From the NCBI GenBank assembly GCA_036227345.1, contig CP109468.1, positions 124,001 through 188,000 on the forward strand: 64,000 nt of DNA, read 5' to 3'. The notes under the pieces are model-generated. The model was given only the letters and a program-made list of their open reading frames with translations. It had not been told where the DNA came from and ran no database searches. Source of the stretch: Streptomyces sp. NBC_01463 (GTDB lineage: Bacteria > Actinomycetota > Actinomycetes > Streptomycetales > Streptomycetaceae). Below, one piece after another: positions 30,616-55,285 of the stretch. The position numbers and the translations under genes are program-made. Every line of letters starts with the position of its first letter. Position 1 is the stretch's first letter.

Positions 30616-32604
30616 TCAGCAGCGGCTGACGTCGATCCGGATCAGATTGCGGCCGCGGATGGCATAGAACCTGCCGCGCTCGTCCACCGCGGCTCGCGGG
30701 ATGCCGTACCAGTCGGCGTCGAGCTCCACCAGGTCGGTGCGTGCGAACGTCTTCTTGTCGTAGCGGACGAAATCCGAGCTGGACGCCCCGTACACGTACC
30801 CGCGATCGGCGAGCAGCGTCCCGTAGTTCGGCACCACCGAGCCGTGGTTGGCGGAGTGGATCACCTTCCGGGTACGCAGGTCGATCACGAAGAAGTCGCC
30901 CCTGAAGCACATGACGTACAGGTGGCGGCCGAGCACGGTGAGGCCCGTGATCCCGGTGGGCCTGGACTGCGGCGTCATCCGCCACAGCTCTCGCCTCCGG
31001 ACCGGATCCCACGCGACCAGGGTGCCGGCGGTCGCGGCGACGTTCTGGCCGCCGAGATAGGTCACGCCGTCGTGCGCGACGACCGCACGGACCATCTGTT
31101 CGTCATCGATCGGGTTGACGGCGGTCGTCGTGGCACCGCTCTTCGGGTCGAACGTCATCAGCGATCCACCCGACTCGTAGTCGGACTGCAGCCCGATCAC
31201 CATCAGCCGGTGGCGGTCGTCCCAGACGATCTGGTGCGGGCGGTTCTGCTGCGGCGGCAGATCGGCCAGCTTGCGGGCCCACTCGTCGTCGACGCGCGGG
31301 TTGAACGCCAGGAGGCCGATCGCGTTGTACTGGGCGAAGTGGGCAGTGCCCCGGTGCAGCAGGATGTCCTTGGCCTCGCTCGTCGCGAGCACCCTGTTCT
31401 GCTTCCCGGTACGCAGATCATGCCGTGCGACCGAGTTCGTCCCGCCGACGTACACGTTGTGCGTGTCGGCGGCTACCGACATCGCCAGCTGGGGCCCGAT
31501 CGGGGCGCCCGCCTCGATCAGATCCCATGAGGTGTCCGAGCCCGTGCCGGGATCGACCTCGAAGATCAGGCCGAAGGCCGAGACGACGATGACCTTGTCG
31601 TCGCGGATCCACAGGCCCCAGATCTCGCCGAAGTCCCCCTCGTTGGGCTTGATCTCGCGGAACGTACCGGTGCTCAACGTCAGCTCGATGAGGGCGGCGC
31701 CGTTGAAGTACATCTTGTCGCCGAGCTTGCGCGGCAGTCGCAGGAAGTGCTGCTCGCTCTGCGCGAGCGTGTACCGGGCCGGGTCGTCGGCGTCCATGAC
31801 GGCGACCGCTGCGCCGGCGTCGGTGGTGGAGCACACGTACAGCGTGCCGTCGTGGAGACCGATGTCGCGGACCTCCACCTGCCCCGCGAATTCCTTCGGC
31901 AGGATCGGCGTGATCTTCTTCGTGGCCCGGTCCATGACGAAGAGTCCGGCCTTGGTACTGGTCGGAGTGGCGCCGAGTGACGCGCCGGTGCCGATGTAGA
32001 TCTTGTCCTGTGTGGCCAGCAGGCAGCGGATCATCGGTACGTCCGGATCGGGGATCGCGATCTCGGTGAGCTCACCGGTGGCCGGATCGTACTGGCGCAG
32101 CTTGGGCTGGAGCTCTCGTCCACCGAAGAAGATCTTGTTGTCCGGTGAGGCGCTGATCGCGTACGGATCGAGGCCGGGGATCGAGTGGAGGTCCTCCTTG
32201 GGCGCGCCGGCCACGGAGAGGTCGAGCCGGATGAAGCCGGGGCCGGGGGCGGAGTCGTACTCCCGGATCGCTGAGTACAGATACCGCCCGTCCGGGTCGA
32301 CGGCGAGCAGCTGGGTGCTGATCCCGGGCCCTTCGGTAACGCTGGTGACCTTCTGCGTGTCGAAGTCGAAGCCGATGATCCGCATCGGATCGATGTTGCG
32401 TGAGGCGATGTAGGCCTTGTTGCCCACCGGAATGGCAGCGGCGAGGGAGAAGTTGTTCACCCCCGGTCCGAGGTCCGTCACCCGCGCCCCCGACCTCGCC
32501 GTCGCCAGGGCCTCGGTCGCGGGCAGGGCGGAGAGGGCCAGTGCACCCGCACCGACGGCCCCCCACTGCATTATCTGGCGTCGTGTGATCGATCCGTCCT
32601 GCAT
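30616..32604 (-). CDS. Tat-exported beta-propeller protein (PQQ-like repeats), paralogue 1
   Basis: 662 residues from ATG 32604. Residues 5-36 are a Tat signal (ITRRQIMQWG, hydrophobic core, ATEALATA). The rest is a string of about eight beta-propeller blades with recurring strands such as LLAVDPDGRYLYSAI, DKIYIGTG and KVIVVSAFG, and a C-terminal GRFYAIRGRNLIRID. No WD40 signature or PQQ ligands can be fixed. A second copy lies at 39076 in the same locus. It is last in the transporter operon. Several polysaccharide lyases and glycosidases use propeller folds, so an extracellular role on glycans is plausible; a binding protein is the alternative. Confidence 0.85.
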   Translation of the reverse strand: MQDGSITRRQIMQWGAVGAGALALSALPATEALATARSGARVTDLGPGVNNFSLAAAIPVGNKAYIASRNIDPMRIIGFDFDTQKVTSVTEGPGISTQLLAVDPDGRYLYSAIREYDSAPGPGFIRLDLSVAGAPKEDLHSIPGLDPYAISASPDNKIFFGGRELQPKLRQYDPATGELTEIAIPDPDVPMIRCLLATQDKIYIGTGASLGATPTSTKAGLFVMDRATKKITPILPKEFAGQVEVRDIGLHDGTLYVCSTTDAGAAVAVMDADDPARYTLAQSEQHFLRLPRKLGDKMYFNGAALIELTLSTGTFREIKPNEGDFGEIWGLWIRDDKVIVVSAFGLIFEVDPGTGSDTSWDLIEAGAPIGPQLAMSVAADTHNVYVGGTNSVARHDLRTGKQNRVLATSEAKDILLHRGTAHFAQYNAIGLLAFNPRVDDEWARKLADLPPQQNRPHQIVWDDRHRLMVIGLQSDYESGGSLMTFDPKSGATTTAVNPIDDEQMVRAVVAHDGVTYLGGQNVAATAGTLVAWDPVRRRELWRMTPQSRPTGITGLTVLGRHLYVMCFRGDFFVIDLRTRKVIHSANHGSVVPNYGTLLADRGYVYGASSSDFVRYDKKTFARTDLVELDADWYGIPRAAVDERGRFYAIRGRNLIRIDVSRC

Positions 32605-32676
32605 GGTTGTGTGCTCCTTCGTCGGTTTCTGAGGATGCGCACGGGGAGTTCATGGCCCTCCCCGTGGCCGGAGGGG

Positions 32677-33357
32677 TCAGCCCGCGGTCCAGCGCAGGCC
32701 GCCCAGGAGGTGGCCGCGGAAGGCCGGGTCGGTATAGGCGTTCTCCGCGTGGCCCAGCGATGTGTAGAACGAGCGGCCGGCGCCGGATTCCCTGCACCAC
32801 ACCAGTGGGTGATCGGCGCCCATGCCGCCTCCCTCGTAGCCGGCCTCGTCGATGGTGGCGAGGACCTGCACGCCGGGGCGTCGCGGGTTGCTCCGGAAGT
32901 CGTACCACTCGTCGTTCCAGTCCCATCGCGACGGCAGATGGCGCGTCGAGGGGTGGCTCCGGTCCTCGACCAGCACGGTGCCGGCCTGGAACTCCGGGTG
33001 GCCGGCGAAGCGTGCGCCGAGCAGCTCCCCGTAGTACGGCCAGGCGTACTCGGTGCACGCGGCCGAGTGGATGCCCATGAAGCCGCCGCCGTCCGAGGTC
33101 CAGCGGCGCAGCGCCAGCCGGCCGTCCGGATCGAGCACCTCGCCGCTGGTGGAGAGGAAGACCACCGCGCTGCGCCCCGCCAGCGAGGCATCGGTGAAGA
33201 CCGAGGGGTCCTCGGAGGTCTCCACGGAGAACCCGTGCTCCTCCCCCAGCTCGCGCAGAGCCGCCTGCCCGGCGGGGATCGAGTCGTGCCGGTAGGCCGT
33301 GGTGCGGGTGAAGACGAGAACGTCCGACAGGCGGTCGGTCTGGGACATGTGGGACAT
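32677..33357 (-). CDS. ThuA-like domain protein
   Basis: 226 residues from ATG 33357 (CGGAG eight bases upstream). VLVFTRTTAYRHDSIPAG, GGGFMGIHSAACTEY and GRSFYTSLGHAENAYTDP are typical of the ThuA family, a class-I glutamine amidotransferase-like fold found in trehalose and other sugar catabolic operons. There is no signal peptide. The biochemical role of the family is poorly known; a sugar oxidation or isomerisation step is usual in such operons. It lies between the 2-hydroxyacid dehydrogenase and the propeller gene. Confidence 0.9.
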   Translation of the reverse strand: MSHMSQTDRLSDVLVFTRTTAYRHDSIPAGQAALRELGEEHGFSVETSEDPSVFTDASLAGRSAVVFLSTSGEVLDPDGRLALRRWTSDGGGFMGIHSAACTEYAWPYYGELLGARFAGHPEFQAGTVLVEDRSHPSTRHLPSRWDWNDEWYDFRSNPRRPGVQVLATIDEAGYEGGGMGADHPLVWCRESGAGRSFYTSLGHAENAYTDPAFRGHLLGGLRWTAG

Positions 33358-33459
33358 GTCGACACTCCGGGTTCTGATGGACAGGGTGGTGGGGCGGCAC
33401 GGTGGCCGCCCGGGCACTCAGGCCGAAAAGCTCAGGCCCAGGCGCTCGGGCCGAAGTGC

Positions 33460-34470: not shown

Positions 34471-34494
34471 GGGGATGATCCTCAGGACGATGGC

Positions 34495-36347: not shown

Positions 36348-36458
36348 ACCGGGCCTTTCTCGAAAGGGGAGCGGGAGGCGTCGGGGCGGGAGCCGATGCC
36401 GGCCCCGGCCTTGCGGGGCGGGCATCGGCTCACCGGGGTTCGCGAACTGCTTCGCGTA

Positions 36459-37867: not shown

Positions 37868-37877
37868 CATCACCTGC

Positions 37878-39075: not shown

Positions 39076-41097
39076 TCAGTGCGACGGCCGGTCGTCGACG
39101 GCGACGAGGTTGCCGCCGCGGAGCGTGTACAGCAGACCCGCGTCGACGTTGACATGCGGGCCGCTGTACCAGGCCCCGTTGATGTCCGCGACGACGGTGG
39201 TGACGGCGAACGTCTTCGGATGGAAGCGGAAGAGCGTGGTGTCCGAGACCCCGTAGACCGCGCCCCGGTTGGTGACCATGGCGGCGAAACCCTTGCTGAC
39301 ACCGCTGACGTCCGCGGTGTGGACCACCTTCCTGGCCCGCACGTCGATGACGAAGAGCCCTCCCCCGGTGGTGAGGCCGTAGAGGTTCCGGCCCTGCACC
39401 GCCAGAGCCGCCACGCCGGCCGCCTGCTTCGTGTCGACGCGCCACAGCTCCTTGCCGGTGACCGGATCGACGGCGACTACGGTGGCGCGTGCGCCCTCCT
39501 TGGCGGCGTTGTCACCGCCCAGGTATGCGATGCCCTCCCGGTTGGCCACCGCCCGTACGAGTTGGACGTCGTCGATCGGATTGACGTAGGACACCGACTT
39601 CCCGGTCCGGGGAGAGTACGTCCAGAGTGCGCCGCCGCCCTCGGTGTCGGACTGCACGCCGACGAGGAGCAGCTTGTTGTCCGGGTCCCACGAGAGGTCC
39701 AGCGGTCGGTTCTGCTCGCTGGGGAATCCCGCCGCCTGCTGCGGCTGCCGCCGCCGGGAGGAGTCGTACCGCCAGATGCCCTGCGCGTTGTACTGGCCGG
39801 TGTGCAGGACGCCTTCGATCACTTCGGCGTCCTTGGCCTCCCCCGGTGCCGACAGGTTGACGACCTCGCCGGTCCTGAGGTTGCGCCGCGAGATGGCGCC
39901 GTTGCCGCCGACGTAGACGTACCCGTGGCCGGCGGCGATCCCCATGCCCGCCTGTGGTCCGGCCTCGGCTCCTGCCTCTTTCAGGTCGGTGACCGCGGAG
40001 GTCTTGGCCGCAATGTCGATCTCGGCGACGAAACCGTAGCCCGAGACGACAGCGAGCCTTCCGTCGGCGTGGTCCAGCCCCCAGATCTCGCCGAGATCCG
40101 GCCCGGTGAACTCCACGTGGGAGATGGTCCTGTCGGCCTTCGAGTAGGCCTCGACTCCCGACTCGGAGGCGAAGTAGATCCGCTCGGCGTCGGAGGCGAA
40201 CGCCTTGACGACGGTGCCCTCGGTCTTGACCACGGTGTACGAGGAGTGGTCCGCCAGGTCGATCACGGCGAGCTTCGCGGGATCGACCGCACCCGACGTG
40301 CCGACCAGCAGCTTCCCGTCATGAACGGCGAGTTCGCGCAGGCTGGGGTCCTTCTCCATCTCCTTGGGCACGATCGAGGTGAACTCACGGCTCTTCCGGT
40401 CGAAGGCGAACAGGGACGCCTTGCTCGCACCGCTTCCACCGGAAAGGACGCTGCCAGCGCCGAAGAAGACGGTGGTGTCCGTGGCCGCGACCGCCCTGGC
40501 CAGCGTCGCCTTCGGGTCCGGGGCACCCAGGTTGGTCACGGCACCTGTGGCGGGGTCGTACTGCCACAGGACGGGTGGCTCGTCCGGGACGCCGCCCACG
40601 GCGAACACCGTGCCGTCGGGCGCGACGGCGAGATCCCGGATGTCGCGGTCCTCGGTCCTGCCGACGGGCACGGCGGGTGTGCCGGGCGTCTTCAGGTCCC
40701 ACCGGTAGAGATTCGGCTTGCCCTGGTCGGACTTGACCAGGACTCCGATGTAGAGGTAGCGGCCGGTGGGATCCGCTGCCAGCGCCTGGACGGAAGGCTC
40801 AGGCCCCGCACCGAGGCTGGTGGACGACACCACTTTCCGGCTCGGCAGATGGAAGCCGACGACGCTGGAGGGGGTCAGGTTGCGCGAGCCGATGTAGACG
40901 GTGTCGCCGACCTGCAAGCCGCTCATCAGCGAGAACTGGACCAGGCCCGGCCCCAGGTCCGTCACCGTGGTCGTGGCCGCCGCCGCGAGTGCTGCGCCTG
41001 CCTGCGGGGTGAGAAGAGCTCCGGCGGCAGTGGCCAGCCCGAACGCACCGCCGGTCTGGATCAGCCGGCGCCTGCTCAGGGAATGAGAAACGGTCAT
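39076..41097 (-). CDS. Tat-exported beta-propeller protein (PQQ-like repeats), paralogue 2
   Basis: 673 residues from ATG 41097. A Tat signal covers residues 1-40 (SRRRLIQTGG, hydrophobic core, AALAAAA). The mature protein begins TVTDLGPGLVQFSLMSGLQV, matching VTDLGPGVNNFSLAAAIPV of paralogue 1, and keeps the pattern throughout (GEIWGLDHADGRLAVVSGYG, DLSWDPDNKLLLVGVQSD). About eight propeller blades are expected. It lies between the regulator and the lyase-like gene, so the locus exports two related propeller proteins. A catalytic role on a glycan is inference; no family with known activity was recognised. Confidence 0.85.
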   Translation of the reverse strand: MTVSHSLSRRRLIQTGGAFGLATAAGALLTPQAGAALAAAATTTVTDLGPGLVQFSLMSGLQVGDTVYIGSRNLTPSSVVGFHLPSRKVVSSTSLGAGPEPSVQALAADPTGRYLYIGVLVKSDQGKPNLYRWDLKTPGTPAVPVGRTEDRDIRDLAVAPDGTVFAVGGVPDEPPVLWQYDPATGAVTNLGAPDPKATLARAVAATDTTVFFGAGSVLSGGSGASKASLFAFDRKSREFTSIVPKEMEKDPSLRELAVHDGKLLVGTSGAVDPAKLAVIDLADHSSYTVVKTEGTVVKAFASDAERIYFASESGVEAYSKADRTISHVEFTGPDLGEIWGLDHADGRLAVVSGYGFVAEIDIAAKTSAVTDLKEAGAEAGPQAGMGIAAGHGYVYVGGNGAISRRNLRTGEVVNLSAPGEAKDAEVIEGVLHTGQYNAQGIWRYDSSRRRQPQQAAGFPSEQNRPLDLSWDPDNKLLLVGVQSDTEGGGALWTYSPRTGKSVSYVNPIDDVQLVRAVANREGIAYLGGDNAAKEGARATVVAVDPVTGKELWRVDTKQAAGVAALAVQGRNLYGLTTGGGLFVIDVRARKVVHTADVSGVSKGFAAMVTNRGAVYGVSDTTLFRFHPKTFAVTTVVADINGAWYSGPHVNVDAGLLYTLRGGNLVAVDDRPSH

Positions 41098-43808: not shown

Positions 43809-43811
43809 TCA

Positions 43812-46049: not shown

Positions 46050-46840
46050 AGGTAGGCACCCCCGTTGACGTCGATGATCTCTCCGGTGCAGAACCCGCCG
46101 AGGTCGGACGCCAGGTACAGCACCGCGCCGGCGACGTCTTCGGGCACACCGGCTCGGCGCAGTGGCGTCGACTCGATCACCGCACGCCGGGTCTCGGGCG
46201 GCGTGAAGGTGGCGTGGAACGGGGTGTCCCCGATGAAGCCCGGCGCGATCGTGTTGACGGTGATGTTGCGCGGGCCGAACTCCTTCGCCCAGGCAAGCAT
46301 GAGGCCGTGCATGCCCGCCTTCGCCGCGGCGTACGCCGAGGCGCCCGGTCCGCCGCCGTTGCGTGCGGCCTGGGAGCTGATGTTGACGATCCTGCCGCCT
46401 CCGGGGCCTATCCGGCGCACCACTGCGCGGGTCACCAGGAACGCGCTGGTGAGGTTCAGATTCAGGACGGTGTGCCAGTGTTCGTCGGGCATGTCGACCA
46501 GACGGTGACGGCCCACGAGACCGCCGGCGTTGTTGATCAGGATGTCGATCGGGCCCTGGAGCTGCTCGGCGGCGTTGCTGACCGCCTCCTCGACAGCTGC
46601 CGGATCGGTGGCGTCGAGCTGCTCGGCGTGCGCGCGCCTGCCGGTGGCGGCGATCCGCTCCGCGGTCTCACGGCCGTCGTGGGCCTTGTACGTCAGCGCC
46701 ACGTCGGCACCGGCGTCCGCCAGTGCGACCGCCACCGCCGCTCCGATGCCCGTACCGCCGCCGGTCACCAGGGCCCTGCGCCCCTGGAGGCTCAACGAGG
46801 GGATCCCGGTCGTCCGCACGTGTGTCGGTGTCTGGCTCAT
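46046..46840 (-). CDS. SDR oxidoreductase 2
   Basis: 264 residues from ATG 46840 with GGGAGGTTGGC upstream. TGGGTGIGAA (26-35), NNAG (103-106), NISS and Y170/K174 (SAYAAAKAG) define an active classical short-chain dehydrogenase, FabG-like. Its ATG overlaps the TGA of the small upstream frame and its stop overlaps the Gfo/Idh gene, so it is fully operon-bound. It probably oxidises or reduces a sugar-acid carbon. Confidence 0.9.
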   Translation of the reverse strand: MSQTPTHVRTTGIPSLSLQGRRALVTGGGTGIGAAVAVALADAGADVALTYKAHDGRETAERIAATGRRAHAEQLDATDPAAVEEAVSNAAEQLQGPIDILINNAGGLVGRHRLVDMPDEHWHTVLNLNLTSAFLVTRAVVRRIGPGGGRIVNISSQAARNGGGPGASAYAAAKAGMHGLMLAWAKEFGPRNITVNTIAPGFIGDTPFHATFTPPETRRAVIESTPLRRAGVPEDVAGAVLYLASDLGGFCTGEIIDVNGGAYL

Positions 46841-47184
46841 GCCAACCTCCCGGTCTGATCGGCCTTCATTTCGTGGTGCGACGGCTCGCGTTCGAGCGGT
46901 CGTCCGATTGCGTACGCCGTGGGCCCGCCTTGACGCGGGTATGCACCAGTCGAGTGTCCGGCGGTGCACCGCGGAGGCTCTGCGTTCGGCACTGCGCGCC
47001 GCGGGCTGTGGGCGGCCACCCAGTTGCCGGAGAACACATCCGGCGCTGCCTCCCAGGTGTCGCCGTCGCCCTGCCCGTCGGGCACGCGGGCGAAGCCGGC
47101 CGGGCGAGCGGCGGCCCGGGGACCGGACTTCCCGGTGCGCGTGCGATCGGTCGAGGGAGTGGCGGATTCGGGTTCGGCGCTCAC
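46837..47184 (-). CDS. Small uncharacterised operon ORF
   Basis: 115 residues from GTG 47184, which has an excellent GGAGGAGAT before it; its TGA overlaps the ATG of the next SDR (ATGA). Those signals suggest translation, but the protein (polar, rich in Arg, Pro and Gly, with DTWEAAPDVFSGNWVAAHSP) resembles no family and may be the remains of a displaced gene. If it is not a gene, the 366-base gap between the two SDRs is otherwise empty. Confidence 0.4.
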   Translation of the reverse strand: MSAEPESATPSTDRTRTGKSGPRAAARPAGFARVPDGQGDGDTWEAAPDVFSGNWVAAHSPRRAVPNAEPPRCTAGHSTGAYPRQGGPTAYAIGRPLEREPSHHEMKADQTGRLA

Positions 47185-47206: not shown

Positions 47207-47953
47207 TCATGACCGGCTGGGGCAGAGCATCAGCTCAGGTACGTGCGCCCGCGGCGGGAGCTGCAGGATCGCGGCGACCATCGCCGCCACGTCCTCCGGC
47301 TGGAGTGCGTGTGCCAGCTGATCGGCCGTGGGAGGGGTCGGACGCTTGGCGATCATCGGGGTCCGGGTGAATCCGGGGTAGATGACGCTGATCCGGACAC
47401 CGTCGGCGCGAGCCTCCTCCATGGCGGCGTGGGCCAGTGCGGCCACGGCTGCCTTGGCCGCCTGGTAGCCGACGCCGGACAGGTCCGGCCTCTTCGCTGC
47501 CGATGACGACACGTGGATGAGCACTCCCCCGCCCTGTCGCTTCAGCGCGGGGAGCGCCGCCCTGGTCAGGGAGAACGCAGCGTCGACGTTCACCCGGAAC
47601 AGCTCACGCCAGTCGCTCTCGGAGAGGGTGTCCAGGGAGCGTCGGGTCACGTTCGTACCGACGCAGTTGACCACCGCGTCCAGTCCGCCGAACTCGGCGG
47701 TGGCACGGTCGACTGCCGTCAGAGCTGCTTCGAGGTCGGCCAGATCGCCGGGGACGCAGAGCACTCGTGTGCCGCCGCCCCGCAGGCGGTCCGCCACTTC
47801 GGCCAGTTCCGGTGCCCGCCGGGCGGCGATGACGAGGTCGGCACCGAGTCCGGCCAGCGTCTGTGCGGTCGCTCGCCCCATGCCGCTGCTGGCACCCGCG
47901 ACGAGAACCGCGTGCCCGCTCAGCGGGCCCTGTGGTGATGGTGGGATGCTCAT
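47207..47953 (-). CDS. SDR oxidoreductase 3
   Basis: 248 residues from ATG 47953, overlapping the preceding stop (ATGA). AGASSGMGRA, a VNCVGTN in place of the usual NNAG, HVSSSAAKR and Y163/K167 (GYQAAKAAV) make it an NADP-type SDR. The altered NNAG motif (NCVG) is a mild deviation that other SDRs also show. It is one of three SDRs in the operon, which suggests several oxidation steps on different carbons. Confidence 0.88.
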   Translation of the reverse strand: MSIPPSPQGPLSGHAVLVAGASSGMGRATAQTLAGLGADLVIAARRAPELAEVADRLRGGGTRVLCVPGDLADLEAALTAVDRATAEFGGLDAVVNCVGTNVTRRSLDTLSESDWRELFRVNVDAAFSLTRAALPALKRQGGGVLIHVSSSAAKRPDLSGVGYQAAKAAVAALAHAAMEEARADGVRISVIYPGFTRTPMIAKRPTPPTADQLAHALQPEDVAAMVAAILQLPPRAHVPELMLCPSRS

Positions 47954-48762
47954 CCGGCCACCAGCCGCCGGATGTACGCCGCGTCGGTCCGGGTCTGGTC
48001 GAGCACCTGTGCGTAGGGCAGCGCGTAGTGGCTGTGCAGGGTGAGCACGCCGTCGAAGTCCGCTGCCCGGAGATGGGCGACGATGGCGGGCCACGGGACC
48101 ATGCCGTCGGCGAGTCCGAACCAGTCGGAGGCCCACGCCCGCCGGCCGTTCGGATCGAGGGCTGCCGGGTACCACCCCCCGTTCTTCACGCCCACGCAGT
48201 CGAGCCAGGTATCCAGCAGGTCGAAGGTCAGCCGCCAGTCCTCCCGCCCTTCCTGCACAGCCTGGTTCCCGGGGTCCGGGTAGGCGACGAACGTGGCCGG
48301 ATCGCGCCCGTCGAGCAGCCGGTGCGCGAGCGCACCGGAGCTGTGCACGGTGCCGCCGTGCAGTTGGAGCGCGAGGCGGACACCGGCCCGTTCCGCGATC
48401 TCGCCCAACCTGTCGAGATCGTGCCTGGCCCGGTCGATCTGCTCGGTGACCCGAGTGTGCGGGTCGTACTTCCAGTAGCCGAGCCGAACCGTGCCGATCC
48501 CGGCCGCGGCGCAGGCTCCGAGCACGGACTCGGCCGGGTGGGCCGCCGGATCGCTGAGGTCGGTCGTCGCCAGCGGCACCGACAGTCCGCCTTCGCGGCA
48601 GCGGGAAACCGCCGCGGAGATGCCGGCAGGACTTGCCGGGGAGGCGGTGAACCCGTCCCGGATGAGGAGATCGACGCCGTCGAAGCCGAGATCGGCGATC
48701 GTGTCGACGGTCTCGGCGACTTCGCGGTCGCCGAACAGCTTGGTGAACAGGACCGTTTGCAT
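47950..48762 (-). CDS. Sugar phosphate isomerase/epimerase (AP endonuclease-2 fold)
   Basis: 270 residues from ATG 48762 with GGAGAAAGG upstream. A TIM-barrel of the xylose-isomerase-like group: TIADLGFDGVDLLIRDG, RLALQLHGGTVHSSG, FVAYPDPGNQAVQ and VKNGGW. The DPGN and H/E residues at strand ends are the usual metal ligands. These enzymes isomerise or epimerise sugars or act as dehydratases in uronate and inositol pathways. It lies between the transporter and SDR genes of the operon. Confidence 0.88.
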   Translation of the reverse strand: MQTVLFTKLFGDREVAETVDTIADLGFDGVDLLIRDGFTASPASPAGISAAVSRCREGGLSVPLATTDLSDPAAHPAESVLGACAAAGIGTVRLGYWKYDPHTRVTEQIDRARHDLDRLGEIAERAGVRLALQLHGGTVHSSGALAHRLLDGRDPATFVAYPDPGNQAVQEGREDWRLTFDLLDTWLDCVGVKNGGWYPAALDPNGRRAWASDWFGLADGMVPWPAIVAHLRAADFDGVLTLHSHYALPYAQVLDQTRTDAAYIRRLVAG

Positions 48763-49041
48763 CCAGTGTTGCCTTTCTCCGGAGGGGGATGGTGCGGTGG
48801 GCTCGCGCACGATCGGTCGGGCTGCCGTCGACGACGGTCCCGGCACCGTTTCGGCGCGGCCCGGCGGGGCGGCACGGACGTCGGGTCGGACGGTGCGTCG
48901 TACCGCTCGGCCGGAACGAGCGCGGGTTCAATCAGCCGGCGTGCGTCACGCCGTGTCGTGCACCGGCGCCTCGGCGGTGCCGCGCACGGCTCCGCCCATG
49001 GGCCGCCCGGGGCTTGGTGAAGTCGGGCCGCAGATCCGGCA

Positions 49042-49878
49042 TCAACGGCCGCCCAGACCACTCATGGTGATTCCGCGGACGAACCACCGCTGGGTGAGGA
49101 AGAACAGAATGATCAGGGGGATCGTGGTGAAGGTGGCCGCCATCAGCAGCAGGTTCCACTGGGTACCGTTGATGTCCTGGAACACCTGCAGGCCGACCGG
49201 GACGGTGCGGGTGGCGTCGCTGTTCGAGATGACCAGCGGCCAGAGCAGGTTGTTCCACTGCCCGATGAACTTGAACACGGCCAGGGTCGCGATCGCCGGC
49301 AGGGCGAGCGGCACGATCACGCGGACGAACGCCTGCCAGCGGTTCGCGCCGTCGAGGCGGGCCGCCTCCTCGTAGTCGCGCGGGATGCCGAGGAAGAACT
49401 GCCGGAGCAGGAACACCCCGATCGCGGTGAACGCGTGCGGCACGATCATCCCCGGCCAGGTGTCGATGCCGTGCAGTTTCGCGACCAGCACGAACTGTGG
49501 AATCAGCGTCACCTGAGAGGGGATCATCAACGTGGCGAGGTAGACCCCGAACAGCCAGCTTCGGCCTCGGAAGTTCAGCCGGGCGAACGCGTACGCGGCC
49601 AGCGCCGCGGTGACCGTTTCGAGGATCGTCGTCCCGGCGGCGAAGTAGACGGTGTTCAGCAGGTACCTGCTGAGCGGGACGAGATCGAACACGCGGCCCA
49701 GGTTCTCGGGGTGCCAACTGCTCGGCCAGAAAGCCGGCTTCGCGGCCATCGACTCGTCGTCGGACTGGAAAGCCACCAGCACCATCATCACGACCGGGAT
49801 CAGCGTGACCGCGGTGACCAGGAAACAGGCGAAGACAACCAGTTTGCGCCTGACGACAGGTTTCGTGTCACTTGTCAT
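49042..49878 (-). CDS. Sugar ABC transporter permease (second system, MalG-type)
   Basis: 278 residues from ATG 49878, overlapping the other permease by 11 bases. Six membrane segments; ATPase-contact loop YEEAARLDGANRWQAFVRV. After it there are 279 non-coding bases before the isomerase gene. With the permease at 49868 and the lipoprotein at 50812 it forms a second CUT1 importer in the locus. Confidence 0.93.
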   Translation of the reverse strand: MTSDTKPVVRRKLVVFACFLVTAVTLIPVVMMVLVAFQSDDESMAAKPAFWPSSWHPENLGRVFDLVPLSRYLLNTVYFAAGTTILETVTAALAAYAFARLNFRGRSWLFGVYLATLMIPSQVTLIPQFVLVAKLHGIDTWPGMIVPHAFTAIGVFLLRQFFLGIPRDYEEAARLDGANRWQAFVRVIVPLALPAIATLAVFKFIGQWNNLLWPLVISNSDATRTVPVGLQVFQDINGTQWNLLLMAATFTTIPLIILFFLTQRWFVRGITMSGLGGR

Positions 49879-50806
49879 AGTGCACCAGCTTCCGTTGGAA
49901 GAGGAACTGGCCCGCAGTGATCAGCACGATGAACGCGAACAGCGCCAGTGACTGCGCGGCGGCGTACCCCTGGTCGTAGTTCTTGAAGCCGGTCTGGTAG
50001 ATGTACATGACCAGCGTGGTGGTCCGGGTGCCAGGTCCGCCGTTCGTCATGATCAGCGCCTGGTCGAAGACCTGGAACGAGCCGATCACCGATGTGACGA
50101 CGACGAAGAACAGCGCAGGGGAAAGCATCGGCAGTGTGATGTGCCGGAAGCTGTGCCACGGCGACGCACCATCCACGCGTCCGGCCTCGTAGAGCTGCTG
50201 CGGAATCGCCTGGAGCCCCGCCAGGATGACGACCATGCCGAAGCCGAAGCTCTTCCACACGCTCATGATGATCAGCGCCGGCATCGCCCAACTGTCCGAG
50301 ACCAGCCATGCCGGTCCACTGATGCCGAACCAGCCCAGGACCGCGTTCACCAGGCCGTCGTGCGGGATGTAGAGCCAGATCCAGACGAACGCCACCGCGA
50401 CCGTGATGGTCGCGTACGGCAACAGCAGGAGCGATCGGAAGACGGCGATCCGCCGGAGTCCCTGGTTGAGCAGCAATGCCAGTGCCAGGCTGACCAGGAT
50501 CGTCAACGGCACGCTGACCAGGGTGAAGTAGGCCGTGTTGCCGAGCGCCGACCAGAACGTCGGATCGGGACCGAGGCGTGCGAAGTTGCGCAGGCCGACC
50601 CAGGTGGGAGAGCTGAACAGGTTCCAGTCCAGCAGCGAGATCACGCCGGCCGCGACGACCGGACCGGCGGTGAAGACGAGGAAGCCGATCAGGCTGGGAA
50701 GGAGGAACAGCCAGGCGGTGAGCGCCTCACGGCTACGCCGGCGCCGGGTGGGAGCGGGTGTGAGCTGTAGGTAAGTGCTGGTGGCGGGTGGAGTGTCGAC
50801 AGCCAT
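49868..50806 (-). CDS. Sugar ABC transporter permease (second system, MalF-type)
   Basis: 312 residues from ATG 50806 (GGAAGAGG upstream); a GTG at 50815 overlapping the lipoprotein stop is an alternative that would add three residues. It has a basic N-terminus (TRRRRSREA) and six membrane segments, with contact loop QLYEAGRVDGASPWHSFRHI. Partner of the permease at 49042. Confidence 0.93.
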   Translation of the reverse strand: MAVDTPPATSTYLQLTPAPTRRRRSREALTAWLFLLPSLIGFLVFTAGPVVAAGVISLLDWNLFSSPTWVGLRNFARLGPDPTFWSALGNTAYFTLVSVPLTILVSLALALLLNQGLRRIAVFRSLLLLPYATITVAVAFVWIWLYIPHDGLVNAVLGWFGISGPAWLVSDSWAMPALIIMSVWKSFGFGMVVILAGLQAIPQQLYEAGRVDGASPWHSFRHITLPMLSPALFFVVVTSVIGSFQVFDQALIMTNGGPGTRTTTLVMYIYQTGFKNYDQGYAAAQSLALFAFIVLITAGQFLFQRKLVHYDK

Positions 50807-50811
50807 CGCGG

Positions 50812-52122
50812 TCACCTCTTCCTGGCCGTGGCTTGGCTGACGGTGTCGCGATGCTGACGCATCAGTACGTCGAGGCGCGGCGTGAGCCCGTCGATGACCT
50901 CGCGGATGCCGACCTGGCCGAGGAAGGCGCGCGGCAGATCCTGACCGAGCAGCTGCTCGACCTGGTTCCAGTTCGTGGTGACGTCGTAGGCGTGCCCGCC
51001 GGCGAGCTTGCCGGCCAGGATGTTCCGGACGATCCCGAGGTTGGCGGGCGGCGGCTGGAAGGCGCTGCCCGCGCTGCGCCGGGCCGGATTGTTGCGGCCG
51101 GCCTTTGCGTAGATGTCGAGCGCACCGGTACTGGTCAGTGTCTTGAGCAGCTTCCACGCGAGGTCGAGCTCGGCGCCCTCTCGTACCCCCGACGGAATCG
51201 CGAAGCCGGTCCCCGAGACGCGCGGCGTACTCCCGGCGGCACCGGCGGGGAACGGGATGACGTCCCAGTCGAACTTCGCCTTACGGGCGTTGACCACCTG
51301 CCACGGCCCGTTCTGCAGGAACGCGACGTTGCCCTGCAGGAAGTTCGACAGCGAGTTCTCGGTGACGAGGTTCTTGATCGGCGGTGTGACCTTGTCCTTC
51401 ACGAACAGGTCGATGACGAACTCCAGGGCCTCCATCGCCCGCGGCTCACCGAGGATGCTCCGGCCGCCGTCCGCACTCATCACGTTTCCGCCGGCGCAGT
51501 AGATCCACGACACCAGGTCGCCGATCGCCGGCGCACAGGTGAAGCCGTACTGCTCACCGGGTTCGGTGAGCTGCTTGGTGAGTTCGCGGAACGCTGCCCA
51601 TGACATCGGTTCGGTGCGTGACGGCAGGGGAACGCCCTGCTTCTTCAGGAGGTCCTTGTTGTAGTACATGACGGTCGGCGCGACATCGAAACCGATCGCG
51701 TACGTCTTCCCGTTGAAGGTCGAGATCCGCTGACTGGTCTCATAGAAGTCGTCGAGCTCGAAGTCGGGGTCGGCGGCGATCAGGTCGTCGAGCGGGCGGT
51801 GGGCGCCGCGGGCGGCGTACGTCGGGATGAGGGTGCCGTTGAGCGCGGTGACCAGGCTCGCGGTACCGCCGACGAGTTGCAGATCGAGCTTGGTCGAGTA
51901 ACCGCTCGACGGGGTCAGAGTGGCGACGGAGCGCACGCCGAGTTGCTGCTCGACATACGTGCCGAAGTCCTCCCAGACCTTCATCTCCTCGGCGCTGCTG
52001 GACCACATGGACCACGTCGCCCTGCCGGAGGTCGGGGCGGACGAACAGCCGGCTGCGGCGAGTCCGAGGCCGGCGAGGCCGCCGAGCTCAAGGAAGCTGC
52101 GGCGGGACAGCTTGCTGATCAT
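50812..52122 (-). CDS. Sugar ABC transporter substrate-binding lipoprotein (second system)
   Basis: 436 residues from ATG 52122. The N-terminus combines a twin arginine (SKLSRRSFLELG) with a lipobox LAAAGC (C26), a Tat-exported lipoprotein, whereas the first system's lipoprotein has a Sec-type signal. The mature protein is a cluster-B binding protein (YAIGFDVAPTVMYYNKDLLK, NVAFLQNGPWQV). It sits after the enolase gene by nine bases. Ligand unknown, likely the same class of sugar acids or oligosaccharides. Confidence 0.93.
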   Translation of the reverse strand: MISKLSRRSFLELGGLAGLGLAAAGCSSAPTSGRATWSMWSSSAEEMKVWEDFGTYVEQQLGVRSVATLTPSSGYSTKLDLQLVGGTASLVTALNGTLIPTYAARGAHRPLDDLIAADPDFELDDFYETSQRISTFNGKTYAIGFDVAPTVMYYNKDLLKKQGVPLPSRTEPMSWAAFRELTKQLTEPGEQYGFTCAPAIGDLVSWIYCAGGNVMSADGGRSILGEPRAMEALEFVIDLFVKDKVTPPIKNLVTENSLSNFLQGNVAFLQNGPWQVVNARKAKFDWDVIPFPAGAAGSTPRVSGTGFAIPSGVREGAELDLAWKLLKTLTSTGALDIYAKAGRNNPARRSAGSAFQPPPANLGIVRNILAGKLAGGHAYDVTTNWNQVEQLLGQDLPRAFLGQVGIREVIDGLTPRLDVLMRQHRDTVSQATARKR

Positions 52123-52130
52123 GGTTCTCC

Positions 52131-53273
52131 TCAGCGATAGAGCAGGTTGATCGACTCGGCGCGAATACGCTCCTCGTCGACCTCGACGCCCAGTCCAGGG
52201 GCTGTGGGGACCGTCGCGACGGCCTTGGTGATGGTCAGCCCGTCGACGTACAGATCGGTCAGGAGTTCCGGCCCGTTGAGTTCGGCGGGCAGAGCGAGCT
52301 CGAGCTGACTGAAGACGTGCAGTGCGGCGGCGAACGCGATTCCGCAGTCGGTGAGACCGCTGGCCAGGATCTCCAGACCGCCGGCGAGCGCGGTCTGGGC
52401 GGTCTTCAGGGCGTTGCGCAGTCCGCCGGACTTGCAGACCTTGATCACGACCAGGTCCGCCGCGTCCAGCCGCATCGCACGCGCCAGGTCCTGGGCGGAG
52501 AAGCTGCCCTCGTCGATCGCGATCGGCAGGTCGATCAGCTCACGCAGCCGGCCCATGGCGAGCGTGTCGGTGCTCGGCACGGGTTGCTCGACACAGTGGA
52601 TCGTCCGGACGTGCGCCGTCCGGTCCAGGAGTTGTCTGAGCGCGGCCGGACGGTACGACTGGTTCGCGTCGAGCCACAGCGGTCTGCCGTCGGCGACTTC
52701 GGCGGCGGTCTCGATCGCCGCCGTGTCGGCGTCCAGATCACCACCGATCTTGATCTTGTACGCCGAATAGTCAGACGACTGAAGTACGTGCTCGCGGACC
52801 GCGGCCCGGTCGCCGACACCTATCGCCGAACAGAGCGGGATCTCGTCGTACACCTTGCCGCCGAGCAGCGCGTGGACCGGAACGCCCGCGAGCTTGCCGG
52901 CCGCGTCGTGCATCGCGACGTCGACCGCGGCGCGGGCGAACGGGAAGCCGTTCGAGACCGCGGGACTGAGACGCTGGGCGGCGCGCCGTTGGAAGAGCTC
53001 GACATCGAACGGTGTGAGGCCGAGCAGGATCGGCGTGAGATGACGGCGGATCACGACGGCCATCGTCTCGGCGGTCTCGTAGCTCCAGCTCGGGAGTGCG
53101 CGCTGCTCTCCCCAGCCGACCACGCCGTCCTCGGTGGTCAGCTTGACGAAGATCACCGCCGCGGACTGGTCCGGCGCGGTGCCGGGTGTGCCGACGGCTC
53201 CGCTGCCGAGCACGAAGCGGCGGGCGAACGGGACGGCGACGGGGAAGACCTCGACCTGGGTGATGCGGGACAT
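52131..53273 (-). CDS. Enolase-superfamily enzyme (muconate-lactonizing/mandelate-racemase type)
   Basis: 380 residues from ATG 53273. A capping domain is followed by a barrel with K173-x-K175 (AYKIKIGG), metal ligands D202 (WLDANQ), E229 (CVEQP) and D254 (AIDEGS), and K278 (VVIKVC). The KxK on strand 2 and K on strand 6 are those of the MLE subgroup: lactone-forming enzymes, epimerases and acid-sugar dehydratases. With sugar-acid dehydrogenases on both sides, dehydration, cycloisomerisation or epimerisation of an acid sugar is the likely step. It is 11 bases from the upstream dehydrogenase. Confidence 0.92.
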   Translation of the reverse strand: MSRITQVEVFPVAVPFARRFVLGSGAVGTPGTAPDQSAAVIFVKLTTEDGVVGWGEQRALPSWSYETAETMAVVIRRHLTPILLGLTPFDVELFQRRAAQRLSPAVSNGFPFARAAVDVAMHDAAGKLAGVPVHALLGGKVYDEIPLCSAIGVGDRAAVREHVLQSSDYSAYKIKIGGDLDADTAAIETAAEVADGRPLWLDANQSYRPAALRQLLDRTAHVRTIHCVEQPVPSTDTLAMGRLRELIDLPIAIDEGSFSAQDLARAMRLDAADLVVIKVCKSGGLRNALKTAQTALAGGLEILASGLTDCGIAFAAALHVFSQLELALPAELNGPELLTDLYVDGLTITKAVATVPTAPGLGVEVDEERIRAESINLLYR

Positions 53274-53284
53274 CTGCGGTCCTT

Positions 53285-54316
53285 TCAGGCGCTGATCGAC
53301 CAGGCGGCCGGGTCGACGAAGCTCGGTCCGCGGGTGCCGTCGGCCAGCCACTGCAGGGCGTCGCGGAGCACATAGCCAGCGAGCGCGAGGTGTCCTTCGG
53401 CGGTGTCGCCGGCTATGTGCGGGGTGAACAGGAGGTTCGGGGCCCGGAGGACGGTCGCGTCGAACGTCGTGGGCTCGGGGTCGTAGACGTCCAGGGCCGC
53501 ATAGATCCGGCCGCCGAGTGCGTGGTCCAGGAGTGCTTGCTGGTCGATCGCGGGGCCGCGTGACGAGTTGACCACGACCGCCCCTTCGGGCAGGTTCTCG
53601 ATCAGCTCGCGGGTGATCATGCCCTTGGTCTCGGGCACGTTCGGGACGTGGATGCTCAGGAACGGACTGTGTGCGGCGTCCTCGAGCGTCGTCGTCCGTA
53701 CGCCGAGTTCCTGCGCGCGTGCGGGCGGCAGGTACGGGTCGTAGACCGCGATGTCGCAGCCGAACGGTTGGAGCATGGCGATCAGTGCGCGGGCGGTGCT
53801 GCTCGCGCCGATGATCCCGACCTTGGCGCCTGCCAGCTCGTGGCCGCGGTACGCCGTCTGCTTCCAGCCGCCGGACCGGATCGCGCCGTCGAACCGCGGA
53901 AGCCGGCGGGCGAGGGTCAGCAGGGCGCCGAGGCAGTACTCGCCGACCGACCAGGCGATCCGCTGACCGGCAGAGAAGACACCGACGCCGTGGTCGAGGA
54001 CGACCGGGTCGATCAGGTGCTTCACCGTGCCGGCCGCGTGCGCGACGACCTTGGGGCCCTGGCCTCCGGCCCACAACTCCTCGCCGAGCTTCGGCGTACC
54101 CCAGCTGGTGAGCAGGACGTCGGCGCCGGCGGCCAACTCGGGCAGGGCGGCCGGGTCGAGAGCAGGAGGGTTACCCGCCCCGGCCGGGCCCGCCGTGTGC
54201 CTGTCATCCGCCCAGACGACCTCGAAGCGTTCGTCGAGAAGTCGGCGCGTGGCTGTGTCGATGACATCGGCGGCACGTTCGGGTGAGATGAGGGCCGCGA
54301 GTCGGGGGTTCGGCAC
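53285..54316 (-). CDS. D-2-hydroxyacid dehydrogenase, paralogue 2
   Basis: 343 residues from GTG 54316 (GAAGGAG upstream). It shares LTSWGTPK and AHAAGTVKHLI with paralogue 1 at 33460. The glycine motif is further changed to GIIGASSTARALI (last glycine replaced), and the usual glutamate of DVxE reads DVYDPEP. Arg (NSSRGPAID) and His (TPHIAG) are kept. It heads the operon opposite the LysR gene and probably handles a sugar-derived 2-hydroxy or 2-oxo acid. Confidence 0.9.
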   Translation of the reverse strand: MPNPRLAALISPERAADVIDTATRRLLDERFEVVWADDRHTAGPAGAGNPPALDPAALPELAAGADVLLTSWGTPKLGEELWAGGQGPKVVAHAAGTVKHLIDPVVLDHGVGVFSAGQRIAWSVGEYCLGALLTLARRLPRFDGAIRSGGWKQTAYRGHELAGAKVGIIGASSTARALIAMLQPFGCDIAVYDPYLPPARAQELGVRTTTLEDAAHSPFLSIHVPNVPETKGMITRELIENLPEGAVVVNSSRGPAIDQQALLDHALGGRIYAALDVYDPEPTTFDATVLRAPNLLFTPHIAGDTAEGHLALAGYVLRDALQWLADGTRGPSFVDPAAWSISA

Positions 54317-54344
54317 GGGAGCTCCTTCGGGTTGGCGTGAATCT

Positions 54345-54360
54345 GAAGGTAGGCGCCTTC
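54345..54360. promoter_or_regulatory. Possible LysR box
   Basis: GAAGG and CCTTC (exact complements, 6 bases apart) in the 93-bp gap between the divergent LysR and dehydrogenase genes. The position suits control of both promoters; the arms are short. Confidence 0.4.
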
Positions 54361-54409
54361 CGTCATGCAGGTCCAAGCCCGTTTTCGCATGAACCGATAC
54401 CGTGCGCGC

Positions 54410-55285
54410 ATGGATTTCACGCTTCAGCAACTCCGTGGCTTCATCGCCGTCGCCGAAGAACTGCACTACGGGCGGGCGGCGCAGCGCCTGAACCTGACCC
54501 AGCCGCCGCTGACCCGCCAGATCCAGGCCCTTGAGCGGATACTTGATGTCCGACTGTTCGACCGCCCCGGCCGCGGGGTCCGGCTGACCGCGGCCGGCGG
54601 AGTGTTCCTGGAGCACGCCCGCCGCGTGCTCGCGCTGCTGGAGGTCGCTCCGGAGGCGACCCGGCGCGCGGCCGACGGGACGACCGGGACACTGCGGCTC
54701 GCGTTCACCGCGATCGGCGCGTACGCCGTACTCGCCGACTTCCTGACCTTGGTCGCCGAACGGACGCCGGGTGTGACGGCGGAACTGACGGAGCTGGTGA
54801 GTCCCGCGCAGTTCGAGGCACTGGCGAATCTCGATATCGATCTCGGGCTGGTGCGGCCGCCGATCCCGGAGAAGTTCGAGTCGCTGCTGGTGCACTCGGA
54901 GGACCTGGTCCTCGCCGTACCGGACTCGCATCCGCTGGCGTCCGGAGAGGGGCCGGTGTCGCTGACCGATGCCACCGCCGACTACATCGGGTACAGCCCG
55001 GAGGGCTCGCAGTATCTGCACGACATCTGCGCGGCGATGATCGGCATGGACCGGTACGCCGTGAGTCAACTGGCTTCACAGGTACCGACGATGCTCGCGC
55101 TGGTGCGTGCCGGACTGGGATGTGCGCTGATCCCACGGTCGATCACGGCGATGCGGGTCGAGGGCATCCGGTACCGCGAACTGGACGCGGCCGACGCGCA
55201 TTCGGTGACGCTGCACGCCTGCTGGAGCCCCGACAACCCGAACCCGGCGCTGCGGCGGCTGGCCGAGGCCCTGCGCGAGGAATAG
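54410..55285 (+). CDS. LysR-family regulator of the sugar-acid operon
   Basis: 291 residues from ATG 54410; MDFTLQQLRGFIAVAEELHY is the normal LysR start, so the longer frame is ignored. The recognition helix region is GRAAQRLNLTQPPLTRQIQA, followed by the effector-binding domain (RLAFTAIGAYAVLADFL, DLGLVRPPIP). Being divergent from the twelve-gene operon starting at 54316, it is the natural regulator, probably an activator that senses a pathway intermediate. Confidence 0.93.
   Translation: MDFTLQQLRGFIAVAEELHYGRAAQRLNLTQPPLTRQIQALERILDVRLFDRPGRGVRLTAAGGVFLEHARRVLALLEVAPEATRRAADGTTGTLRLAFTAIGAYAVLADFLTLVAERTPGVTAELTELVSPAQFEALANLDIDLGLVRPPIPEKFESLLVHSEDLVLAVPDSHPLASGEGPVSLTDATADYIGYSPEGSQYLHDICAAMIGMDRYAVSQLASQVPTMLALVRAGLGCALIPRSITAMRVEGIRYRELDAADAHSVTLHACWSPDNPNPALRRLAEALREE

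What the first reader, a model, noticed from the sequence alone, without database searches (positions are those of the whole stretch)
30616..55285. A 24-kb two-operon sugar-acid/glycan utilisation locus
Seen: secreted lyase-like protein, two propellers, two complete CUT1 importers, a DeoR/LacI and a LysR regulator, two 2-hydroxyacid dehydrogenases, an MLE-type enolase, three SDRs, Gfo/Idh, isomerase and an IdnD-like enzyme. The combination predicts a full route from extracellular uronic-acid glycan to central metabolites, and I do not recognise it as a described pathway.
Basis: partly seen in the sequence, partly recalled or inferred. Interest (0 to 1): 0.75.

Follow-up and report, generated by a model that had tools for sequence, protein, structure and literature searches.

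The report
Two separate sugar-acid operons side by side
The 24-kb stretch is two independent sugar-uptake operons that happen to be neighbours in this soil bacterium; one belongs to a widespread, apparently undescribed type in which an importer and an unusual dehydrogenase travel with glycan-degrading enzymes, and that dehydrogenase may be the missing step by which such bacteria digest uronic-acid glycans.

Summary
The gene list is right; the single pathway is not. Operon A (30.6-42.1 kb) and operon B (42.5-54.3 kb plus divergent LysR) are separated by a perfect 21-bp palindrome and occur independently. Operon B orthologues lie within 10 kb in 0 of 74 propeller loci; the propeller is absent from 4 of 4 other Streptomyces with the operon B enolase; two genomes hold both, on different contigs.

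What the halves share is an HADH with GxxGAS instead of GxGxxG in the NAD loop. In five genomes 21 of 24 such HADHs, but 1 of 26 ordinary ones, lie near CUT1 permeases; 18 of 24 against 0 of 26 lie near a glucuronate-dehydratase-family protein, PL8, tandem propeller or sulfatase (genomes chosen for holding propellers). This genome has no GH88/105, UxaC or KduI detected. I propose that the HADH processes the alpha-keto acid left after lyase action. Published xanthan loci carry an HADH without a role and lack GH88; their authors call the uronyl-removing enzyme unknown (PMC12772297). Substrates are untested.

The parts
41220..42167 (-). Operon A, first gene: PF14099 polysaccharide lyase (NCBI name 'heparin lyase I family'), likely start 42062
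   Evidence: 55.0 bits, cut-off 29.9; homologues; alignment A2 (invariant R141 S142 E143, Q187, Y282, K284, Y288 in 14 sequences); start
39076..41097 (-). Operon A: 673-aa tandem beta-propeller (prop2), twin-arginine-like start by eye
   Evidence: AlphaFold model pLDDT 88.4, pTM 0.86; propeller folds only in the rows shown; 349 homologues scored
37878..38999 (-). Operon A: regulator, DeoR HTH fused to LacI-type sensor domain
   Evidence: PF08220, PF13377
36459..37865 (-). Operon A: CUT1 solute-binding protein
   Evidence: PF01547
35451..36425 (-). Operon A: CUT1 permease 1
   Evidence: PF00528
34495..35460 (-). Operon A: CUT1 permease 2
   Evidence: PF00528
33460..34470 (-). Operon A: GAS-type D-2-hydroxyacid dehydrogenase
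   Evidence: PF02826; NAD-loop and substrate-loop motifs
32677..33417 (-). Operon A accessory: ThuA-domain protein
   Evidence: PF06283, 259 bits
30616..32604 (-). Operon A accessory: second propeller (prop1), 37-38% identical to prop2
42218..42236 (-). 19-bp element conserved upstream of the lyase gene (candidate operator)
   Evidence: 8 upstream regions aligned, with substitutions in some; 1 match in window, 0.08 expected
42414..42455 (-). Perfect 21-bp inverted repeat without loop, behind idnD: likely end of operon B
   Evidence: fold z-score -6.4; the terminator scan found nothing (no T-run)
53285..54268 (-). Operon B: GAS-type D-2-hydroxyacid dehydrogenase (start approximate)
   Evidence: PF02826; 36% to operon A HADH
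52131..53276 (-). Operon B: MR/MLE-type enolase-superfamily protein
   Evidence: best solved relative 2p88 E 7e-46
50812..52122 (-). Operon B: CUT1 solute-binding protein
49868..50824 (-). Operon B: CUT1 permease 1
49042..49878 (-). Operon B: CUT1 permease 2
47950..48846 (-). Operon B: xylose-isomerase-like TIM barrel
   Evidence: PF01261
47207..47959 (-). Operon B accessory: SDR1
46046..46969 (-). Operon B accessory: SDR2 (start probably near 46840, by inspection)
44742..46049 (-). Operon B accessory: Gfo/Idh oxidoreductase
   Evidence: highest identity among 294 other genomes of the genus 41%
43812..44576 (-). Operon B accessory: SDR3, gluconate-5-dehydrogenase-like
   Evidence: PRK08085 330.9 bits, cut-off 408: below
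42494..43534 (-). Operon B accessory: zinc dehydrogenase, IdnD-like
   Evidence: PRK09880 235 bits, cut-off 469: below
54365..55285 (+). Operon B: divergent LysR regulator
   Evidence: stands beside the operon B HADH and enolase in 6 of 6 other genomes looked at

Best explanation
Two independent catabolic operons are neighbours. Operon A is a depolymerase-importer-HADH operon: a secreted PF14099 endolyase cuts a (glucur)uronate-containing polysaccharide by beta-elimination, leaving a 4,5-unsaturated uronyl end; the secreted tandem propeller acts on or binds the same glycan (perhaps as an exo-acting lyase, a guess from other propeller lyases, recalled); a CUT1 importer brings fragments in; the GAS-type NAD-dependent HADH, the one metabolic enzyme listed in the minimal cassette, handles the 5-keto-4-deoxyuronate unit, whose C5 ketone beside the C6 carboxylate is an alpha-keto acid, the substrate class of HADHs. 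Operon B is a HADH-enolase-TIM module for an imported sugar acid, here extended by an idonate-like end (IdnD-like plus gluconate-5-dehydrogenase-like SDR), Gfo/Idh and two more SDRs. Shown: gene content, independence, the HADH subfamily and its neighbourhood. Inferred: secretion, every substrate and every reaction.
For: Independence; palindrome. Short cassette on a Streptomyces plasmid: lyase, propeller, regulator-like protein, SBP, two permeases, HADH, then a small DUF5954 protein; PL8 analogues with SBP-perm-perm-HADH-PL8 in a row on two Arthrobacter plasmids (PLSDB gene tables are incomplete). HADH subfamily: 24 GAS-type, 21 near CUT1; 26 ordinary, 1 near CUT1, Fisher p 7.6e-10. Neighbours of the 24: DUF2264 in 9, propeller in 7, never both; PL8 2; sulfatase 4; none of these near the 26 ordinary ones. 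A DUF2264 protein matches solved beta-D-glucuronate dehydratases (9o4u E 3e-24, 9nwf E 2e-23; PMC12269599). Own genome: no GH88/105 (3 of 14 control genomes ring), no UxaC, the one KduI-family hit is IolB, three KDPG aldolases. Published xanthan loci with HADH and without GH88: PMC12772297.
Against: No substrate was tested. The PF14099 lyase was detected in 19 of 74 propeller loci, all Streptomyces, so elsewhere the propeller cassette works without it and the lyase may not define the substrate. The propeller's fold search gives only generic propellers. Six of 24 GAS-type HADHs lie near none of DUF2264, propeller, PL8 or sulfatase (three of them near the operon B enolase), and plasmid cases include GH36-like and GH35 neighbours, so the substrate may be broader than uronyl products. 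The four comparison genomes were picked because they hold propeller loci, and the DUF2264, PL8 and sulfatase queries came from HADH neighbourhoods. The closest solved DUF2264 relatives include 8oi4, deposited as beta-galactosidase (PMC12269599 argues that the family are dehydratases). Whether the published xanthan HADHs are GAS-type, or were among the induced proteins, was not seen. Absence of Pfam PF07470 in one genome does not exclude an unknown uronyl hydrolase.
Confidence: 0.5

Rival explanations
1. One reading: A and B form one pathway that takes a uronic-acid glycan to central metabolites, A depolymerising and importing, B catabolising.
For: Same strand, adjacent, both with CUT1 genes and HADHs of one subfamily (36% identical); in Streptomyces G343 and Kribbella G336 both exist in one genome.
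Against: 0 of 74 propeller loci have B orthologues within up to 10 kb; 27 of 29 propeller genomes searched have no operon B enolase at E 1e-60 (G039 and G337 look like one genome; Arthrobacter and Microbacterium propeller genomes were not in that search); 4 of 4 other enolase genomes have no propeller; separate regulators and a hairpin between them; the plasmid copy of A has no B beside it.
Confidence: 0.08
2. The GAS-type HADHs are 2-ketoaldonate reductases of the GluC/GhrB kind (2-keto-L-gulonate to L-idonate); operon B then runs L-idonate to 5-keto-D-gluconate (IdnD-like) to D-gluconate (SDR3), a bacterial version of the fungal D-glucuronate route.
For: GluC of Aspergillus niger is a D-2-hydroxyacid-dehydrogenase-family 2-keto-L-gulonate reductase needed for growth on D-glucuronate (PMC4870679, passages); operon B has IdnD-like and gluconate-5-dehydrogenase-like enzymes; an IdnD (70%) and SDR3 (55%) pair lies near an HADH in Arthrobacter G346 (L207).
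Against: IdnD and SDR3 score below the NCBIfam equivalog cut-offs (235 of 469; 331 of 408); in the six other operon B copies looked at (20-kb stretches) no orthologue of IdnD, SDR3 or Gfo was seen (only weak SDR hits of 29-35% in Kribbella) while HADH and enolase stay; the HADH in L207 is of the ordinary type; the enolase and TIM barrel have no place in this route.
Confidence: 0.25
3. The HADHs are general carbonyl or redox housekeepers carried along with sugar operons and have no specific role in uronate handling.
For: Neighbourhoods are varied (GH35, GH36-like, Gfo/Idh, enolase), and the substrate-loop motif is not the same in all members.
Against: The subfamily shares its NAD-loop type, has seven copies in this genome, each near its own CUT1 genes, and is the only metabolic enzyme listed in short lyase gene rows.
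Confidence: 0.15

Closest known systems
Xanthan utilisation regions of Paenarthrobacter ilicis 6C and Microbacterium sp. XT11 (PMC12772297)
   Same: Polysaccharide lyase, CUT1-type importer genes and an HADH beside the importer genes, LacI-family regulators in 6C; no GH88 gene; 6C region induced by xanthan (13 of 15 detected proteins significantly overabundant at OD 1.0, as the paper says)
   Different: PL8, GH9, GH38 and GH3 instead of PF14099 lyase and tandem propeller; the paper's proposed pathway gives the HADH no role; its motif type was not checked here
Bacteroides caccae chondroitin PUL25 with beta-glucuronate dehydratase (PMC12269599)
   Same: Lyase plus the dehydratase family (DUF2264) that neighbours sister HADHs; both make 4,5-unsaturated uronyl ends
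   Different: Uses GH88 to remove the end; no HADH was seen in the passages read; operon A has a propeller and no dehydratase
Fungal D-glucuronate route with GluC (PMC4870679)
   Same: HADH-family enzyme on a sugar-acid keto acid, L-idonate intermediate, comparable to HADH plus IdnD-like in operon B
   Different: Fungal; no enolase, importer or lyase in the route described; sequence relation between GluC and operon B HADH not tested
Enolase-superfamily MLE subgroup (muconate cycloisomerase, N-acylamino acid racemase)
   Same: Both Pfam domains and sequence similarity
   Different: Below the NCBIfam cut-offs of all 16 families matched; context is sugar import

Membership tests
Polysaccharide lyase PF14099 (heparin lyase I / PL13, PL20-like) | Pfam gathering score | tested here: met
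   55.0 bits against 29.9
Polysaccharide lyase PF14099 (heparin lyase I / PL13, PL20-like) | Conserved cleft residues (R-S-E, Q, Y-x-K-W-G-x-Y) | tested here: met
   Invariant in 14 of 14 aligned sequences; that these are the catalytic positions is recalled
Polysaccharide lyase PF14099 (heparin lyase I / PL13, PL20-like) | Lyase activity on a uronate polymer | not testable with these tools
   Needs enzyme assay; no solved relative by sequence; structure job unfinished
Propeller polysaccharide lyases (PL11, PL22, PL24, PL25, PL42) | Structural match to such a lyase | tested here: inconclusive
   Only generic WD40/YVTN and other propellers among the rows shown
D-isomer 2-hydroxyacid dehydrogenase | PF02826 NAD-binding domain over gathering score | tested here: met
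   148.4 and 147.8 bits against 25.1
D-isomer 2-hydroxyacid dehydrogenase | Active-site Arg, Glu and His | tested here: met
   Arg and His in 11 of 11 HADHs of this genome; the Glu position (placed by recalled numbering of E. coli SerA) is Glu in 10 of 11, both window HADHs included, and Asp in L129
D-isomer 2-hydroxyacid dehydrogenase | Usual GxGxxG NAD loop and G-x-D-N-I/V-D-like substrate loop | tested here: not met
   GxxGAS (or GFS, SAS) NAD loop in 24 of 50 HADHs and HAAGSVKH-like loops in many but not all of them; a separate subfamily within the family
Known uronate catabolism after lyase (GH88/105, KduI, or UxaC route) | GH88/GH105, KduI and UxaC genes in the genome | tested here: not met
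   PF07470 0, PF02614 0, PF04962 only IolB
L-idonate pathway (IdnD, IdnO) | Equivalog cut-offs for IdnD and gluconate 5-dehydrogenase | tested here: not met
   235 of 469 and 331 of 408 bits; it may still work like it
CUT1 ABC importer | SBP, two permeases and ATPase | tested here: inconclusive
   SBP and permeases met; no ATPase among the proteins scanned; a shared ATPase elsewhere was not sought

The most novel reading that the evidence does not exclude
GAS-type HADHs are the missing step of actinobacterial (and some alphaproteobacterial) uronate-glycan use: a redox-driven replacement for GH88/GH105 plus KduI/KduD, in which the enzyme captures the hydrated, ring-opened 4,5-unsaturated uronyl end as an alpha-keto acid and reduces it at C5 with NADH, pulling the release of the aglycone sugar, instead of reducing the aldehyde at C1. 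The tandem propeller and the DUF2264 dehydratase, never seen together near one HADH (0 of 24) and DUF2264 in 0 of 74 propeller loci, would be alternative suppliers of that end.
Probability: 0.25. Interest if true: 0.85.

Novelty: new variant of a known kind. Interest (0 to 1): 0.55.

Why it matters
Authors of a 2025 xanthan study say that the enzyme removing the glucuronic acid in two actinobacterial xanthan loci is unknown, no GH88 being present, and that the region very likely holds a novel activity or a secondary activity of one of its enzymes (PMC12772297, passages and section 15). The same loci contain an HADH without an assigned role. The neighbourhood counts here point to one HADH subfamily as a candidate across lyase, dehydratase and sulfatase operons, which makes that open question testable with a handful of recombinant enzymes. 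It also gives a marker gene for finding undescribed uronate-glycan operons, and a warning that adjacent catabolic operons need not be one pathway.

Tried and rejected
One 24-kb pathway: rejected by independent occurrence. Glucarate route for operon B: a glucarate dehydratase (L094; 767 bits, under the 828.7 cut-off; L095 and L096 alike by eye) lies 4-5 kb beyond LysR in three Streptomyces, but other genes lie between and none was seen in the window, so it was left as a side observation. Gfo/Idh plus ThuA plus TIM as a 3-keto-sugar pathway: the Gfo gene (followed by DUF993 in L077) is in only 6 of 74 loci, so not core. Fold search for a named lyase family: no such row among those shown, which shows nothing. 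AlphaFold of the lyase: still unfinished at the last poll. Simple promoter and terminator scan found nothing at 41.9-42.7 kb. Paper searches: 23, 67, 68, 69, 71, 75, 83, 95, 108, 109; searches found no paper, so absence from print is claimed for that library and those terms only.

Counting choices: one search used 27 of the 74 loci as genome handles plus G019 and G039 (G039 and G337 look like one genome); all are Streptomyces or relatives such as Kribbella, Catenulispora, Nonomuraea and Janibacter, none Arthrobacter or Microbacterium. One search used all 39 matches and 11, flanks of up to 7 kb; one Kribbella frame (L189, first match) has an intermediate motif and was counted as ordinary. In the plasmid search 12 of 40 listed rows (189 records in all) were opened, mostly chosen for carrying annotation, H11 after its listing already showed DUF2264; one had no annotation; motif check on 10.


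Full report
Setting. The window lies at 124-188 kb of a 9.0-Mb contig in a genome of 9.07 Mb in 2 contigs; the closest homologues are Streptomyces proteins, so the genus is inferred to be Streptomyces. GC is 0.65-0.72 throughout.

Observation. Additions: a ThuA protein, no ABC ATPase among the 20 proteins scanned, and the correct end of operon A, which starts with the PF14099 lyase near 42062. Between the idnD stop (42494) and the lyase lies a perfect 21-bp inverted repeat without loop, 42414-42455, folding far better than shuffles (z -6.4). The terminator scan did not flag it, but its place suggests the end of operon B.

Are the halves one unit? A propeller-alignment scan of the genome-contig collection gave 74 loci. 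Mapping the window's proteins on them shows a recurrent cassette of propeller, DeoR/LacI-type regulator, SBP, two permeases and HADH in Streptomyces, Arthrobacter, Microbacterium, Agromyces and others: HADH in 65 of 74, CUT1 in 66, regulator in 56, lyase in 19 (all Streptomyces), ThuA in 9, operon B orthologues (at least 60%) in 0 of 74, within up to 10 kb of the propeller (13 loci are cut short). On a plasmid of Streptomyces sp. NBC_00708 the listed genes run lyase, propeller, substrate-binding-domain protein, SBP, two permeases, HADH, then a small DUF5954 protein.

Conversely, the operon B enolase (at 79-81%) is in 4 of 294 other genomes of the genus. There LysR, HADH, enolase, SBP and the two permeases stand together, followed by a TIM barrel that is at most weakly similar to the window's (27-29% in L095 and L097; PF01261 in L094), without orthologues of IdnD, the SDRs or Gfo in the 20 kb taken; the propeller is absent from those genomes. 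The accessory end of operon B is rarer still: among 294 other genomes the highest Gfo identity is 41%.

What the halves share. The two HADHs are 36% identical and both have an unusual HAAG[ST]VKH loop and GxxGAS in the NAD-binding loop. The genome has 11 HADH matches; 7 carry the GAS-type NAD loop, 4 the ordinary one. All 7 lie near CUT1 permeases, none of the 4 does. Their partners differ: PF14099 lyase with propellers (operon A), PL8 with DUF2264 and an M60 peptidase (L140), DUF2264 (L139), sulfatase (L142), Gfo/Idh and others (L141), no glycan enzyme seen (L138), enolase (operon B).

I repeated this in four more genomes (Streptomyces, Kribbella, Arthrobacter, Microbacterium). Over all five, 50 HADHs: 24 GAS-type (GAS, GFS or SAS) with 21 near CUT1, 26 ordinary with 1 (Fisher p 7.6e-10). 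Of the 24, 9 lie near DUF2264, 7 near the propeller, never both, 2 near PL8, 4 near a sulfatase, 3 near the operon B enolase; 18 of 24 have at least one of DUF2264, propeller, PL8 or sulfatase, against 0 of 26. The genomes were chosen because they hold propeller loci; leaving the 7 propeller cases out, 11 of 17 remain. The substrate-loop motif is less uniform than the NAD loop. The query proteins for DUF2264, PL8 and sulfatase came from such neighbourhoods, so I looked at independent annotation: among 11 annotated plasmid neighbourhoods (12 of 40 listed rows opened, 189 records in all, not a random choice), DUF2264 is next to the HADH in 5 (two with ThuA as well), PL8 in 2, lyase plus propeller in 1, an MLE-type enolase in 1, a GH36-like protein and TIM barrel in 1, GH35 with NagA and NagB in 1 (for the last ones). 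Ten of ten checked have the GAS-type loop. The DUF2264 pairing reaches Alphaproteobacteria (Chelatococcus, Martelella, Sinorhizobium, Terrarubrum).

Meaning of the partners. The DUF2264 protein of L140 matches solved beta-D-glucuronate dehydratases (9o4u, 9nwf) and 8oi4, deposited as beta-galactosidase. The paper on 9o4u and 9nwf reports that a member of this former GH154 family makes a 4,5-unsaturated glucuronyl end which GH88 then removes, and proposes the same for the whole family (PMC12269599; abstract and passages read). PL8 lyases make the same kind of end. Thus dehydratase and PL8 partners converge on one chemical group, and a PF14099 lyase would too. Yet this genome has no GH88/GH105 detected (3 of 14 control genomes ringing), no UxaC and no KduI, its only PF04962 protein being IolB, while three KDPG aldolases exist. 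In the two Arthrobacter PL8 gene rows and the NBC_00708 cassette the HADH is the only metabolic enzyme listed in the row (PLSDB tables are incomplete).

Mechanism proposed. After beta-elimination, hydration of the double bond and ring opening give 5-keto-4-deoxyuronate, whose C5 ketone next to the C6 carboxylate is an alpha-keto acid (established chemistry; the known DEH reductase A1-R reduces the C1 aldehyde and is an SDR, PMC8778563 passages). HADHs act on alpha-keto acids. I therefore propose that the GAS-type HADH reduces this unit, possibly while it is still attached, so that reduction drives release of the next sugar. This is inference; no activity was measured. A rival with a biochemical precedent is GluC, an HADH-family 2-keto-L-gulonate reductase needed for D-glucuronate growth in Aspergillus niger (PMC4870679 passages), which fits the idonate-like end of operon B better than its core.

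Link to an open question. In Paenarthrobacter ilicis 6C and Microbacterium XT11 the xanthan region holds PL8, ABC sugar-importer genes and an HADH, and the authors state that a GH88 enzyme is missing and that what removes the glucuronic acid is unknown (PMC12772297; abstract, sections 13 and 15 and passages read). Their proposed pathway gives the HADH no place. I did not obtain those HADH sequences, so their subfamily is untested, and I did not see whether the HADH was among the induced proteins. A 2018 survey of the HADH family lists 13 biochemically unstudied subfamilies (PMC6303947, section 23 and passages); whether this one is among them was not checked.

The propeller. Both proteins have a twin-arginine-like start (by eye). 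The prop2 model is good (pLDDT 88.4), about twice the length of one seven-bladed propeller, but fold searches return only generic propellers. Many invariant charged and aromatic residues in 43 aligned sequences suggest a binding or catalytic site. An exo-lyase role is a guess.

Regulation. A 19-bp element upstream of the lyase is recognisable in 8 aligned upstream regions and occurs once in the window; operon B has no copy. With separate regulators this argues for separate control, but expression was not measured.

Verdict. Two neighbouring modules of known general kind, one of them a representative of a widespread, apparently undescribed importer-HADH operon type with exchangeable glycan enzymes (searches of the held library). 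The mechanism is open and quickly testable.

Noticed in passing
L140:8812-16916 (G000:C1:1166812-1174916): Same genome: HADH, M60 peptidase, PL8 lyase and DUF2264 (glucuronate dehydratase family) in a row, CUT1 genes divergent; likely a hyaluronan/chondroitin/xanthan-type operon.
   Followed up: partly
L142:3959-10884 (G000:C1:239959-246884): Same genome, about 56 kb past the window: ROK-like regulator, GAS-type HADH, sulfatase (74% to the one of L014), SBP and permeases; a sister of the propeller-sulfatase clusters of Arthrobacter.
   Followed up: partly
window 42414-42455: Perfect 42-nt palindrome with no loop between the operons, strong RNA hairpin.
   Followed up: yes
window 59207-60460: Mutator-family transposase about 4 kb beyond the LysR gene.
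   Followed up: no
window 29008-30351: A second LysR-type regulator on the + strand just past the end of operon A.
   Followed up: no
L094:18714-19985, also L095 and L096: Glucarate dehydratase 4-5 kb from the operon B LysR in three Streptomyces, with other genes between.
   Followed up: partly
L077:12058-14387 and five other loci: A Gfo/Idh gene (with DUF993 behind it in L077) next to operon A in 6 of 74 loci, perhaps an accessory sugar-oxidation step.
   Followed up: partly
L207 (G346:C137:1756001-1771000): Arthrobacter pair of IdnD (70%) and SDR3 (55%) near an ordinary-type HADH: the idonate-like end of operon B exists as a module of its own.
   Followed up: no
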